Origin: Thiofilum flexile DSM 14609
GTDB taxonomy: Bacteria; Pseudomonadota; Gammaproteobacteria; Thiotrichales; Thiotrichaceae
NCBI RefSeq assembly: GCF_000380185.1
Contig: NZ_KB904748.1
Coordinates: forward strand, 1-64,000
Length of the DNA stretch: 64,000 bases
Reading direction: 5' to 3'
Made by a program: the position numbers and the translations under genes. Under the pieces are notes generated by a model. That model saw nothing but the letters and a program-made list of their open reading frames with translations. It was not told the DNA's origin and did not search any database. This document shows, one piece after another, positions 45,853-51,250 of the stretch (the stretch's first letter is position 1; every line of letters starts with the position of its first letter).

Positions 45853-46431
45853 ATGCAACAGGTATCTAAATTAGAGTATTTAACCTTTGAAGAATATCTT
45901 GCCGGTGAGCCTGTGAGTGATGTGCGTTATGAGTATATAGCAGGTCAAGTCTATGCTATGGCTGGCGGCAGTGAGTTACATAATACGGTTGCCGCTACCT
46001 TTCATGGCATGATTGAAAATGCCTTACCTGATCATTGCCGTTCTTGGCAGTCGGATATGAAAGTCGTGGGTAAAACACAAGGTGAGCACTTTGCGTATTA
46101 TCCCGATATTATGGCGTCTTGCGAGGTGAATAAAGGCGATAACCCTTATATTCGTGATAACCCCTGCTTAATTATTGAGGTACTTTCACCCTCAACTCAA
46201 CGCATTGATTTAAAAGAAAAGTTTGATGGTTATACCCAGATCACTAGTTTATTAGAGTATGTGGTAGTTTCACAAGATACGCCCTATTTACGCATTTTTC
46301 GCCGCCGTACCCATTGGCAAGCGGAGTCTTTTTATGCAGATGATACGTTTACCCTAGAGTCGATAGGGTTAACGGCAATGGTTAAGCAGATTTATCGGCG
46401 CGTGAAAAAAGAAGTGGGGCTGATTAACTGA
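45853..46431 (+). CDS. Uma2 family restriction-endonuclease-like protein, intact copy
   Basis: A 192-residue protein of the Uma2/DUF820 family, a PD-(D/E)XK fold. Motifs: FEEYLAGEPVSDVRYEYIAG at the start, YYPDIMASCE and [11 protein letters not shown] (core Asp, Glu), then KFDGYTQITSLLEYVVV. The family expands in many genomes, often associated with mobile DNA; cellular role unknown. A related but interrupted gene lies 1.7 kb downstream on the other strand. A strong bidirectional terminator follows. Confidence 0.9.
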   Translation: MQQVSKLEYLTFEEYLAGEPVSDVRYEYIAGQVYAMAGGSELHNTVAATFHGMIENALPDHCRSWQSDMKVVGKTQGEHFAYYPDIMASCEVNKGDNPYIRDNPCLIIEVLSPSTQRIDLKEKFDGYTQITSLLEYVVVSQDTPYLRIFRRRTHWQAESFYADDTFTLESIGLTAMVKQIYRRVKKEVGLIN

Positions 46432-47349: not shown

Positions 47350-47493
47350 CTACTCTTTAAACATCACTCCGTTATAAAGTAACAGCATTTCTAGCTCGAT
47401 ACCTAGTGTTACTAATTTCACTCTAGCGTCTATTGGGGTATGAATATGAAAGTACCATTCATCACGGTTAATTTTATCAGTTTCGCCGTAAAA
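47350..47493 (-). pseudogene. 3' fragment of a Uma2 family gene, separated by IS insertion
   Basis: On the minus strand, one frame running out of the IS left end reads YGETDKINRDEWYFHIHTP, then VKLVTLGIELEMLLLYNGV, MFKE and a stop at 47350. This is the typical C-terminus of Uma2 proteins (the LGIEL and LY-GV pattern). It continues the reading frame broken at 48698 if the two flanks are joined through five T residues. This indicates that the IS200/IS605-type element inserted into a formerly intact Uma2 gene. Confidence 0.8.
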
Positions 47494-48697
47494 CCCCGTC
47501 CGTTCACGGCGGGGATATCAGGCGAATCGGTTGGAAACCGATGATTCGGTCGTTCACTTGAGTTAGAATAGTAGCATGACATCCCCCCTAGTGACGGTTC
47601 TCAAAACGCTAAAAGTACGAGTCAAGGATAAGCACAAGCCTATTCTTGAACGTATGGCTTTTGAGGTGAATCAGGTCTGGAATGCTGCCAATGAAGAAAC
47701 GGCCTATTATGCACATTTACCGATTCCTGAGATGGGTTGGCTTCATGTATACCTGAGCGCTTATGATCTTGCTAAATCTCAAGCAGCTCTACGTAAAGAA
47801 CGGGGGTTTCTCATTCACTCTCAAACAGTTCAAGAAGTGACGGAAGCCCACGAGAAAGCCCGCAAGCAATTCAAGAAAAGCAAATTGCGCTGGAGAATAT
47901 CGAGTGGTTCTAAACGTTCCTTAGGTTGGATACCCTTTAAAAAAGGCGCAGCCATTTGGAAGAATGGACAAGTTCGCTATGCAGGTCACTATTTCAAGGT
48001 ATGGGATAGCTATGGATTAGCTCAATATGAGTTTCGTTCTGGTTCATTCTCTCAAGATGCTAGAGGACGTTGGTATTTCAATGTGGTTGTAGAAGTCCCA
48101 GTTATAGAGTCGATAGCTCAAGGACAAGTGGGCATTGATTTAGGTTTTAAAGATACGGCTACCTGTAGCAATGGCTTAAAGCTTGAATCCAAACAATTCT
48201 ATCGAGAACTGGAATCTAAACTGGGTATAGCTCAAAGAGCTAAACAGAAAAAACGGGTGAAAGCGATTCATGCCAAAATCAAGAATCGTCGTTTAGATGC
48301 TATCCATCAATTCACGACCCAAGTCGTTAAAGATAACAGCTTAATCGTCATTGGCAATGTGAGCAGTTCTGCTTTAGTTAAAACTAAAATGGCAAAGTCT
48401 GTATTAGATGCAGGATGGTACATGCTCAAGACACAACTGAAATACAAAGCGAGTGCGCGGTCAGGGGTGTGTTTAGAAGTCAATGAATCGTACACTACCC
48501 AAGCTTGTTCATGTTGTGGCTGTATTAGCCCCAACAGTCCGAAAGGTAGAATAGGCTTACGAATAAGAGAATGGTCTTGCCCTGAGTGTGGGGCAACGCA
48601 TGATAGAGATGTCAATGCAGCTAAGAATATTCTCGCGCTCGGACATGAGCGTCTGGCAGCAGGAATCCCCGTCCTTTAGGTCGGGGAGGATGTCAAG
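47494..48697 (+). mobile_element. IS200/IS605-type (IS1341-like) element carrying tnpB only
   Basis: About 1.2 kb. The left end holds the hairpin CCCCGTCCGTTCACGGCGGGG-type stem (47494-47514); the right end has a similar one, CCCCG with CGGGG, at 48667-48686. These subterminal hairpins are what TnpA of the family recognises. No tnpA is present, so mobility would depend on one elsewhere. A second hairpin (CGAATC with GATTCG, inner CGGTT/AACCG, 47522-47548) lies before tnpB. Boundaries are uncertain by about 4 bases because of A runs on both sides. The insertion splits a Uma2 gene. Confidence 0.85.
47576..48679 (+). CDS. tnpB: TnpB, RNA-guided nuclease of IS200/IS605-type element
   Basis: A 367-residue TnpB, the Cas12 ancestor family, guided by an omega-RNA from the element's right end. 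RuvC-I is clear: [16 protein letters not shown] with the catalytic Asp. The zinc finger is ACSCCGC...WSCPECG and the RuvC-III block is [15 protein letters not shown] with the second Asp. At the usual RuvC-II position the sequence is [12 protein letters not shown], without the expected Glu; a Glu in [11 protein letters not shown], just before the zinc finger, may substitute. The stop codon lies inside the right-end hairpin, so the omega-RNA overlaps the 3' end of the gene. Confidence 0.9.
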
Positions 48698-49135
48698 AAA
48701 ATGCTCTAACATGACTTGTTCAGGATCAATCAGAATATAATCTTGTAATGAGGCTATAGAGCGATAGTGGGCAAATTTACCACCACGGTCATAGTCACGT
48801 GTACTGGGCGAAAGTACTTCAATAATGATAATAGGGTTTAATAAAGTGGTGTTATTATCACTTAATTCCGGCTGACCACAATAAACTGAAATATCAGGAT
48901 AGGTATCTAATCCAGAGGGTGTATGAACACGCATATCGCTATTCATGGGGTGGCAGGACTTACCAGTCAATTTTTGGCGTAAGAGCGCGTAAACATTACC
49001 CGCTACTTGGGCATGGTTAAATGTACCCCCTGCCATAGCAGTAATCTGCCCTTGAAAATACTCATGACGCTGGGTGTGGTAGGACTCTTGGAGTAGATAT
49101 TGCTCACGGCTGATGGTGTTTTCAACGGGAAACAT
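48698..49135 (-). pseudogene. 5' fragment of a Uma2 family gene, cut by IS insertion
   Basis: Starts [20 protein letters not shown] and has the Uma2 core motifs [23 protein letters not shown] and [12 protein letters not shown], then QVMLEHF, where it runs into the IS right end. The open frame continues into IS DNA to 48557 and would yield a 192-residue hybrid whose last 50 residues are not Uma2. The true C-terminus lies across the element at 47350-47493. Whether the truncated product is active is unknown; the nuclease core residues are all in this fragment. Confidence 0.85.
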
Positions 49136-49331
49136 GGGTTTATCCTATTCATCGTCTATGGTTGTATTGTAGCGGACATCACTACAGATTAGCAGTGTAG
49201 CCGCGTTCTGATTCAAGGTAGCCATCAAACTATAGGAACCCAAGAAACCGATAGAGCACTGAATAGGGGAAATTTCAAACGATTGCTACGTGGATAAGTG
49301 CCTAATCATCAATTAAGGTGCTATAGTACCC

Positions 49332-49413
49332 CCACTCTCGGGGAGCCTTTGGCTGAGATGTGTTGACAGACCCGTAGAACCTGATCCAGTTAGTACTGGC
49401 GTAGGAAAGAGTG
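49332..49413 (+). ncRNA. TPP (thiamine pyrophosphate) riboswitch
   Basis: The THI-box consensus is easy to see: CACTCTCGGGGAGCC, then GGCTGAGA, GACCCGTAGAACCTGATC, and a closing GGCGTAGGAAAGAGTG that pairs with the first bases. A possible -10 (TATAGT) lies at 49322-49327. It is transcribed rightwards. The next gene on its strand is thiB, 860 bases on; the thiamine-kinase-like gene between lies on the opposite strand. No clear terminator or sequestered start codon is seen directly after the aptamer, so the expression platform is unclear. Confidence 0.93.
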
Positions 49414-49433
49414 AAACCCGCCCCTTTCGTGTC

Positions 49434-50231
49434 TCATTGCTCCTGCGCATGGCCTCTTGCCCAATACCATAATTCCGCCAGTACCTGATTCAGCCGTTTT
49501 GCACTCTGTAAGCCTGCTTGCCATTGTTGAGCCGTTACGTGTTGAAAGGCCGGTAGGGTGCGAAGGTGTTGGGGATCTAAACCCCAGGTGACTAACGCCA
49601 CTGCATCAAACCACGCATTACCTAACCCTGCATATTCCCAATCAATGAGAACAAACGGATGAGCGCGTGTTGTGTTTTGGCAGACATTACCTAGATGTAA
49701 ATCATGATGGACTAATACCGGAGGCAGTCGCGGTAAAGTGCTTAGCTTTTCACGCCATTCTGTAAGTAGTGCTTGAGCGAGGGGAGAGGGGAAGCGTTCT
49801 AGCAGGGTTTGATATTGTGCCGTTAGCTGGGTGTAGTCGATTGTGAGCAGAGTGACATCAGCGATTGGGATCGTGATGGATTGCAGCTCGGCTAAGGTCT
49901 GGGGTAGGGATAGGAGAGCGGTTTGACTCAACGCTTGAGGGACTGGCTCATAGGCCTGCATCAGGCATAACCCCTGTGGCACATCGTTACGAATAATCTG
50001 CACGGCCCACGGATAGGGCTGAATGAGTTCGAGTACTTTAGCCTCACACAGGCGATTCACGCTAAAGGCCAAAGTACTCGGCGCATTGACCCGTAACACA
50101 TAAGACTGCGTGGGACATTCAACACGATAGAGCGTATTGCTACTACCGCCACTGAGGGAGTGTAGTACATAAGGAGCCGAGAGTGTGGCTTGCAACCAAG
50201 TATGCAGCCAAATAGATGGGGGTGGAGTCAT
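49434..50231 (-). CDS. thiamine kinase-like phosphotransferase (ThiK-like)
   Basis: A 265-residue aminoglycoside/choline-kinase-fold protein. Motifs: GGSSNTLYRVE (ATP loop), VLRVN (Lys position occupied by Arg), LVHHDLHLGNV (catalytic loop) and VLIDWEYAG (metal-binding Asp). Length and the adjacency to thiB and a TPP riboswitch favour thiamine salvage, phosphorylating thiamine to thiamine monophosphate, over choline or aminoglycoside phosphorylation. It is divergent from thiB with 41 bases between start codons. Its 3' end is 20 bases from the riboswitch on the other strand, which makes it antisense to any riboswitch read-through. Confidence 0.75.
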   Translation of the reverse strand: MTPPPSIWLHTWLQATLSAPYVLHSLSGGSSNTLYRVECPTQSYVLRVNAPSTLAFSVNRLCEAKVLELIQPYPWAVQIIRNDVPQGLCLMQAYEPVPQALSQTALLSLPQTLAELQSITIPIADVTLLTIDYTQLTAQYQTLLERFPSPLAQALLTEWREKLSTLPRLPPVLVHHDLHLGNVCQNTTRAHPFVLIDWEYAGLGNAWFDAVALVTWGLDPQHLRTLPAFQHVTAQQWQAGLQSAKRLNQVLAELWYWARGHAQEQ

Positions 50232-50272: not shown

Positions 50273-51250
50273 ATGAAAATTCTTGCTCCTCTGGCTGTTA
50301 GTTTAATGGCCTTTAGCGCTCAAGCGGCAGATCTTACGGTTTATACCTATGATTCCTTTATTTCAGAATGGGGACCTGGTCCCAAACTAGAAGCTGAGTT
50401 TGAAAAACAATGTCAGTGTGATCTGAAATTTGTAGCAGTCGAGGATGGCGTGAGCATCCTCAATCGCCTACGGATTGAAGGGGATAGTACGAAAGCCGAT
50501 GTGGTATTGGGTTTAGATAATGGTTTAGTCGAGGAGGCTCGTGCTACTGGCATTTTACAAGAGCATGGTCTGACCTTGCCCGCTTTTAAACCCGAATTAA
50601 AGTGGGAAGATAAAACCTTTGTACCCTATAACTATGGCTATTTTGCGTTTATTTATAATAGCGACAAGATCAAAGAGCCGGTTAAATCCTTAAAAGAGCT
50701 AATCGATTCTAAAGCCAGTGTGATCTATCAAGACCCGCGCACGAGTACCCCCGGACAAGGCTTAATGCTATGGGTCAAGGCCGTATATGGCGATAAAGCG
50801 CCTGAGGCATGGAAGGCATTAGCACAACATACCACGACAGTAACTAAGGGGTGGTGGGATGCGTATAGTATCTTCTTAAAAGATGGGGCGGATTATGTAT
50901 TAAGCTATAGCACCTCGCCTGCCTATCATGTGATTAGTGAAAATAAAACCCAGTATAAAGCCGCACCTTTTGCCGAGGGGCATGTACCCCAGATCGAAGT
51001 CGCTGCTATGACTAAAACCACTCAGCAACCTGAGTTAGCCCGCCAGTTTTTAAACTTTTTAGTCTCAAAAGACGCGCAAACTATTATTCCGGTCACGAAT
51101 TGGATGTTGCCTGTAATTGAGGGTATTGAGTTACCGCCGGTATTTAGTGAGTTGATTCAACCGCAACGAATTGGCTTTAGCAATGAAGAGATTGCTAAGC
51201 ATCGTAAGGACTGGATCAGCGAATGGCGTTCTAGTGCGGTGAAGGAATAG
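50273..51250 (+). CDS. thiB: thiamine ABC transporter substrate-binding protein
   Basis: A 325-residue periplasmic binding protein with a signal peptide (MKILAPLAVSLMAFSAQA). The ThiB pattern is clear: LTVYTYDSFISEWGPGPKLE, then CDLKFV, then STKADVVLGLDN, and a C-terminal PVTNWMLPVIEG segment. It delivers thiamine or its phosphates to ThiP/ThiQ, which are not in the window. The gene lies downstream of a TPP riboswitch but beyond an oppositely oriented kinase-like gene, so riboswitch control would need a long leader. A local promoter would have to sit within the 41-base gap or the kinase gene. Confidence 0.92.
   Translation: MKILAPLAVSLMAFSAQAADLTVYTYDSFISEWGPGPKLEAEFEKQCQCDLKFVAVEDGVSILNRLRIEGDSTKADVVLGLDNGLVEEARATGILQEHGLTLPAFKPELKWEDKTFVPYNYGYFAFIYNSDKIKEPVKSLKELIDSKASVIYQDPRTSTPGQGLMLWVKAVYGDKAPEAWKALAQHTTTVTKGWWDAYSIFLKDGADYVLSYSTSPAYHVISENKTQYKAAPFAEGHVPQIEVAAMTKTTQQPELARQFLNFLVSKDAQTIIPVTNWMLPVIEGIELPPVFSELIQPQRIGFSNEEIAKHRKDWISEWRSSAVKE

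What the first reader, a model, noticed from the sequence alone, without database searches (positions are those of the whole stretch)
47350..49135. IS200/IS605-type element inserted in a Uma2 gene; both halves recoverable
The 5' part of the gene (48698-49135, minus) breaks at VMLEHF, and the 3' part (47350-47493, minus) continues YGETDKINRDEWYFH to a Uma2-like end. The reading frame joins if five T residues are kept. The open frame that would be annotated as a complete 192-residue gene (48557-49135) is therefore a hybrid with IS sequence. This fixes the target site of the element to within 4 bases and shows the tnpB element moved recently.
Basis: seen in the sequence. Interest (0 to 1): 0.6.

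Follow-up and report, generated by a model that had tools for sequence, protein, structure and literature searches.

The report
Jumping gene interrupting a nuclease gene
A small transposon carrying an RNA-guided nuclease gene (tnpB) has landed inside a Uma2-type nuclease gene; this is real but ordinary, and the junction lies 16 bases from where it was first placed.

Summary
The core observation holds: a tnpB-only IS200/IS605-type element splits a Uma2 gene, and both halves are recoverable in frame. Six other full-length copies in the same genome show that the element runs 47478-48696. The corrected join is seamless (EHF/HKINRDEW, one split codon). It aligns without insertion to all 22 Uma2 sequences compared and scores best of 39 left borders tried. 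The element sits directly 3' of TTAT, with no duplication. Its ends are IS608-like: GAAT with TCAA on the right, AAAA with TTAT on the left; a sister subfamily in the same genome has AAAG with TTAC. The 192-aa frame is a hybrid: 146 native residues plus 46 from the transposon. "Moved recently" is not shown: the other full copies are 87-91% identical, the stranded C-terminal half is unusually diverged, and no other genome of the genus is held. Most likely mechanism: single-strand insertion by a TnpA acting in trans, with TnpB and its RNA (guide from 48697) holding the site. It is a new member of a known kind.

The parts
47478..48696 (+). Complete tnpB-only IS200/IS605-family element (1219 bp), LE to RE
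   Evidence: Both borders fixed by alignment with 6 other full-length copies in the same genome at unrelated sites
47474..47477 (+). Target site / left cleavage site TTAT, retained in the left flank; predicted TAM for TnpB
   Evidence: TTAT directly before the element in 7 of 7 full copies of the subfamily; TAM role inferred from PMC8612924 passages
47490..47493 (+). Left guide AAAA, directly 5' of the LE hairpin
   Evidence: Position equivalent to IS608 GL AAAG (PMC5934647 passages); AAAA in 6 and AAGA in 1 of 7 copies with TTAT, AAAG in 7 of 7 readable copies with TTAC
47494..47514 (+). LE subterminal hairpin with one unpaired T
   Evidence: Single-strand DNA fold of 47478-47530, z -3.75, 0 of 200 shuffles as good
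47576..48679 (+). tnpB, 367 aa, RNA-guided nuclease family; alternative-glutamate (Ealt) RuvC-II
   Evidence: PF07282 E 2.6e-23, PF01385 E 7.1e-10; NF040570 E 3.9e-69; motif ExxxxxxCxxC (PMC10711439 passages)
48584..48712 (+). Predicted guide RNA: scaffold from the tnpB 3' end and RE, guide starting at 48697 (first 16 bases included)
   Evidence: Sub-threshold match to Rfam HgcC at 48584-48706 (24.1 bits, gathering 50), and at the right end of 8 of 11 other loci; guide position inferred from published TnpB work
48663..48666 (+). Right guide GAAT, its last base at the foot of the RE hairpin
   Evidence: Sequence; equals IS608 GR GAAT (PMC5934647 passages)
48666..48687 (+). RE subterminal hairpin
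   Evidence: Single-strand DNA fold, but only z -1.74, 14 of 200 shuffles fold as well
48693..48696 (+). Right cleavage site TCAA, last four bases of the element
   Evidence: Homology with the other copies stops here; equals IS608 CR TCAA
48697..49135 (-). Uma2 gene, 5' part: 146 codons plus the first base of codon 147
   Evidence: PF05685; frame and join
47350..47477 (-). Uma2 gene, stranded 3' part: rest of codon 147, 41 more codons, stop codon 47350-47352
   Evidence: HMM match to Uma2 C-termini; border scan peaks at 47477
48557..49135 (-). Hybrid open frame, 192 aa: 146 native residues, 46 read from the element's antisense strand (codon 147 begins with one native base)
   Evidence: ORF list; alignment; tail block pLDDT 39-55 against 88-96 for the same region of an intact relative

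Best explanation
A non-autonomous IS200/IS605-family element that carries only tnpB inserted directly 3' of a TTAT in the Uma2 gene, antisense to the gene, with no target duplication. Shown: borders, target site, both gene halves, hybrid frame, absence of tnpA from this copy. Inferred: insertion as single-stranded DNA by a Y1 TnpA acting in trans, the left guide AAAA pairing with TTAT. TnpB with an RNA made from the tnpB 3' end and the right end takes as guide the Uma2 sequence from 48697 on; it would cut an empty Uma2 allele next to TTAT, so that repair copies the element back. The host gene loses its C-terminal strands and helix, and the 192-aa frame is probably a non-functional hybrid. The confidence given is for the shown part; for the inferred steps it is about 0.75.
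For: Six other full copies share exactly 47478-48696 and, beyond it, only TTAT (TTTAT in five of the six) on the left. With right border 48697, left border 47477 gives the best Uma2 profile score of 39 borders tried (287.5; next 280.5). 22 of 22 sequences compared align across the join without insertion (two of the 22 are the same protein, one is an own-genome paralogue). The C-terminal half matches Uma2 C-termini at E 1.6e-9. Of 13 Uma2 domains in the genome this one ends earliest, at profile 139 and base 48698; the other 12 reach 149-171. Ends equal IS608 letters GAAT/TCAA, and AAAG/TTAC in the sister subfamily. Relatives with a divergent tnpA and the same kind of ends exist in G033. TTAT plus the first 16 guide bases occurs nowhere in the own genome with fewer than 2 mismatches; the one 2-mismatch match is the element's own right flank, with TCAA in place of TTAT, and two others have 3.
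Against: No strain with the empty allele of this very gene is held; the nearest intact relatives are 72-74% identical over the N-terminal part. The only TnpA matches found in the own assembly belong to an IS200-like element with a different right end, so the mobilising enzyme is not identified. The RE fold is weak against shuffles (z -1.74). No transcription or cleavage data.
Confidence: 0.93

Rival explanations
1. One reading: the element ends at about 47493 and the gene reads VMLEHF-YGETDKINRDEW, so the Uma2 gene natively carries YGETD.
Against: 47478-47493 stands next to the element, identical or one base different, in 6 of 6 other full copies at unrelated sites. No extra residues in 22 of 22 sequences compared. 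With right border 48697, borders from 47478 to 47500 score at most 280.5 against 287.5 at 47477.
Confidence: 0.02
2. The element arrived long ago and the 3' half is a slowly decaying remnant, rather than a recent insertion. (Compatible with the best explanation; it concerns age only.)
For: The C-terminal half is less similar to its relatives than N-terminal similarity predicts: mean residual -0.105, lowest of 15 rows, next -0.064; -0.097, lowest of 18 rows, next -0.055; sd of single-pair residuals about 0.066. The nearest full copy is 91.2% identical.
Against: No stop codon or frameshift in the 42-residue remnant, and the Trp invariant in 19 relatives is kept. Only 36 columns were compared. 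The full copies are all about equally far from each other (87-93%), so the distance need not date this insertion. Young copies could be collapsed at contig ends, where many element fragments lie; one 136-base fragment is 93% identical.
Confidence: 0.4
3. The hybrid 192-aa protein is a working Uma2 variant, the transposon supplying a new C-terminus.
For: 16 of the 17 residues invariant among 19 relatives are kept, and the frame is open to a stop.
Against: The tail is modelled with block pLDDT 39-55, whereas an intact relative has strands and a helix there at 88-96. The 17th invariant residue, a Trp, is lost. No second genome with the hybrid was looked for.
Confidence: 0.05

Closest known systems
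IS608 (IS200/IS605 family, Helicobacter pylori)
   Same: Subterminal hairpins, insertion 3' of a tetranucleotide kept on the left, GR GAAT with CR TCAA; the sister subfamily has the very same GL AAAG and CL TTAC
   Different: No tnpA in this element; GL AAAA with TTAT instead of AAAG with TTAC; the first base after the right end is G here and C in only 1 of 7 full copies, whereas IS608 prefers C after its target site
tnpB-only members of the IS200/IS605 family (IS1341-like group; name recalled, from no call)
   Same: tnpB alone between IS605-type ends, multicopy
   Different: No difference looked for beyond the anatomy
ISDra2 TnpB with its right-end RNA
   Same: tnpB followed by RE, with flank as predicted guide and target site as predicted TAM
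   Different: Catalytic glutamate in the alternative (Ealt) position; activity of this protein untested
Uma2 family (PF05685)
   Same: The interrupted gene: conserved core in the 5' half, C-terminal part in the 3' half
   Different: Split by the element

Membership tests
IS200/IS605 family (IS605/IS608-like ends) | Subterminal hairpins at both ends instead of terminal inverted repeats | tested here: met
   LE z -3.75; RE hairpin is the best fold but weak against shuffles (z -1.74, 14 of 200 as good)
IS200/IS605 family (IS605/IS608-like ends) | Insertion 3' of a short fixed site, no target duplication | tested here: met
   TTAT on the left in 7 of 7 full copies, no repeat of it on the right
IS200/IS605 family (IS605/IS608-like ends) | Guide/cleavage-site pairs at both ends | tested here: met
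   Letters compared with IS608; pairing itself not assayed; three elements of relatives do not fit simply (L082, L122, L125)
IS200/IS605 family (IS605/IS608-like ends) | Y1 transposase TnpA encoded in the element | tested here: not met
   98 bp between the left end and tnpB, no tnpA; PF01797 matches in the own genome lie elsewhere. Hence filed as a tnpB-only, non-autonomous member, not as an autonomous IS605
TnpB RNA-guided nucleases | OrfB/TNB domains and RuvC D-E-D residues | tested here: met
   GIDLG, Ealt ExxxxxxCxxC, DRDVNAA
TnpB RNA-guided nucleases | RNA-guided cleavage next to a TAM | not testable with these tools
   Needs an assay
Uma2 (PF05685) | Profile match over the core above the curated cut-off | tested here: met
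   105.2 bits against cut-off 27
Uma2 (PF05685) | C-terminal section with conserved EW and Y | tested here: met
   Present only in the stranded 3' half

The most novel reading that the evidence does not exclude
Within one genome, two sister tnpB-only subfamilies have switched target site together with the left guide (AAAA/TTAT and AAAG/TTAC). Because the target site should also be the TAM, their TnpB proteins (element DNA 78-81% identical) should have switched TAM in step. The TTAT subfamily may have done so to be moved by the resident IS200-like TnpA, whose own element also seems to sit after TTTAT and shows AAAA just before its left hairpin.
Probability: 0.12. Interest if true: 0.45.

Novelty: new member of a known kind. 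Interest (0 to 1): 0.17.

Why it matters
It is a clean, base-exact IS605-type insertion with a predicted guide target, useful for annotation: the 192-aa 'Uma2' is a hybrid. The paired subfamilies with different guide and target letters in one genome are a natural test case for whether TAM preference follows transposase target choice.

Tried and rejected
Rejected: TnpB inactivated by loss of the canonical RuvC-II glutamate. The canonical position, aligned by eye to a recalled motif, holds Gly in all 11 proteins printed (the window's among them; 11 of the 29 loci listed in the script gave a printed frame). The alternative glutamate is present in all 11, as in the Ealt group of PMC10711439 (passages only).

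Not settled: which TnpA moves the element. Own PF01797 matches (7, all partial) belong to an IS200-like element whose shared sequence starts TTTATTAG and ends GTTAAGTT (its exact left border was not fixed and its hairpins were read by eye, not folded). In other genomes I looked for TnpA only in G033, G027, G024 and G008.

Against a perfect guide/site rule: in relatives' elements, L122 (TTAC with other guide letters), L125 (TTAG before the element, guide AAAG) and L082 (TTAT with a different foot) do not fit simply. The search pattern required TTA, so it could not have shown other first letters; raw flanks are (L011 only). L014 and L015 are cut off and have no left end; L017-L020 were not tried, being fragments.

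Little use: plasmid search (0 of 402 matching records cover 80% of the query); literature searches (rearranged sites; Uma2), of which only listings were seen. One search timed out with no output and was replaced.

Full report
What is there. The window lies in a 3.79 Mb, 71-contig genome (G000). Among 19 named loci found with the Uma2 5' part, the closest is in Leucothrix pacifica (74% identity). A 367-aa tnpB (47576-48679, +) sits inside a Uma2 gene that runs on the minus strand.

Borders. DNA search of the own genome with 47400-48800 gave 25 matches. Seven, the window's included, cover the whole element and sit in unrelated surroundings. In all seven the shared sequence starts with C at 47478, preceded by TTAT, and stops at A48696 (TCAA); the flanks beyond differ. 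The element is therefore 47478-48696. The residues YGETD come from these 16 bases.

The interrupted gene. Taking the two flanks without the element joins codon 147 from one base on the right and two on the left...VMLEHF-HKINRDEW.... A profile was built from 14 Uma2 sequences (14 of the 29 non-window loci fetched, the best-scoring ones; 13 from other genomes, one an own-genome paralogue). It finds the stranded 3' frame with E 8.5e-6, and its C-terminal section gives E 1.6e-9; the next of 1788 window frames, 0.34, is the intact Uma2 neighbour. With the right border held at 48697, 39 left borders were tried: 47477 scored highest, 287.5, next 280.5. This agrees with the border from the element copies, obtained independently. 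In the alignment with 22 other sequences (19, three more from the family search; L060 and L150 are the same protein) none has extra residues at the join. Of 13 Uma2 domains in the genome, this one stops earliest, at profile position 139 and base 48698; the other 12 reach 149-171.

The hybrid frame. The 192-aa frame 48557-49135 holds 146 native residues and 46 read from the element. A model of the hybrid is confident to about residue 147; the ten-residue blocks after 150 have mean pLDDT 39-55, with a weakly predicted strand and helix. An intact relative (L058) has strands and a helix there at 88-96. Of 17 residues invariant in the 19 intact proteins the hybrid keeps 16 and loses a tryptophan. 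The hybrid is probably not functional; this is inference.

How the element works. The published letters for IS608 are CL TTAC, GL AAAG, CR TCAA, GR GAAT (PMC5934647, passages). Here the right end has GAAT and TCAA. The left has TTAT in 7 of 7 full copies of the window's subfamily, with AAAA in 6 and AAGA in one (L002). A second own-genome subfamily, 78-81% identical, has TTAC and AAAG in 7 of 7 copies with a readable left end (L008-L013, L016). In relatives, L078, L079, L080, L090, L091 and L099 also show TTAC and AAAG (they come from three genomes). Exceptions are L082, L122 and L125. In G033 three elements with the same kind of ends have a tnpA match pointing the other way 90 bp from the tnpB match, so the window's element is best read as a tnpB-only derivative. 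The own assembly's TnpA matches (7 partial) belong to an IS200-like element with another right end.

TnpB. A curated model names it RNA-guided TnpB (NF040570, E 3.9e-69). At the canonical RuvC-II glutamate position (by eye) there is Gly, but the alternative glutamate before the zinc-finger cysteines is present in the window protein and in the other 10 printed ones. That is the Ealt arrangement described in PMC10711439 (passages). By the model in PMC8612924 (passages), the target site is the TAM and the right flank is the guide. TTAT plus GAAAATGCTCTAACAT has one match with 2 mismatches in the own genome, the element's own right flank with TCAA in place of TTAT, and two with 3. So the predicted target is the empty Uma2 allele, as the homing model requires. 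Nothing was assayed.

Age. The six other full copies are 86.9-91.2% identical to the window's, and 87.3-92.7% to each other; a 136-base fragment is 93% identical. The C-terminal half is less similar to relatives than its N-terminal half predicts (mean residual -0.105, lowest of 15 rows; -0.097, lowest of 18), which hints at time without selection, but only 36 columns were compared. Against great age: no stop or frameshift in the remnant. No other genome of the genus is held, and the closest of 63 family genomes carry relatives at 72-74%, so no direct test was possible.

Verdict. A real, base-exact and ordinary transposon insertion; corrected border, corrected join, hybrid ORF confirmed, recency open. 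The paired guide/site letters of two subfamilies in one genome are the most interesting by-product. They agree with the known IS608 rule that the left guide selects the target by base pairing.

Noticed in passing
window 48584-48706; same place in other copies: Sub-threshold match (24.1 bits, gathering 50) to Rfam HgcC, an archaeal RNA, where the TnpB guide RNA should lie; 8 of 11 other element loci show it too (22-29 bits, E 0.006-0.5). In Thermococcus kodakarensis HgcC1-3 are transcribed from within transposase genes in the same direction, but HgcC4 and HgcC5 are not tied to transposase genes and the Pyrococcus furiosus one is antisense (PMC4247193, passages). HgcC may be in part a TnpB guide RNA family. 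The first 10 of 134 papers listed for HgcC/TnpB/IS605 hold no HgcC.
   Followed up: partly
window 49329-49424 (+), 49434-50231 (-), 50273-51250 (+): A TPP riboswitch (68.3 bits) lies 848 bases upstream of thiB, with a thiamine-kinase-like gene (far below the thiK cut-off) on the opposite strand in between, so a riboswitch-led thiB transcript would be antisense to it. Three relatives' loci with a 37-38% identical kinase show no riboswitch above the gathering score within the fetched flanks.
   Followed up: partly
L051-L057 (contig ends of G000): A multicopy IS200-like, tnpA-only element broken at contig ends; shared sequence starts TTTATTAG with AAAA shortly before its left hairpin and ends GTTAAGTT on the right.
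   Followed up: partly
G000 contig ends (L010, L013-L020 and others): Many contigs of the assembly end inside copies of this tnpB element, so the copy number is probably underestimated.
   Followed up: no
window 45853-46431 (+): A second, intact Uma2 gene of 192 aa about 0.9 kb from the stranded half; 13 Uma2 domains in the genome.
   Followed up: no
L085-L088, L096, L097, L105, L106: Matches to the window's element limited to its last 36-41 bases in several relatives: solo right ends or ends of other elements.
   Followed up: no
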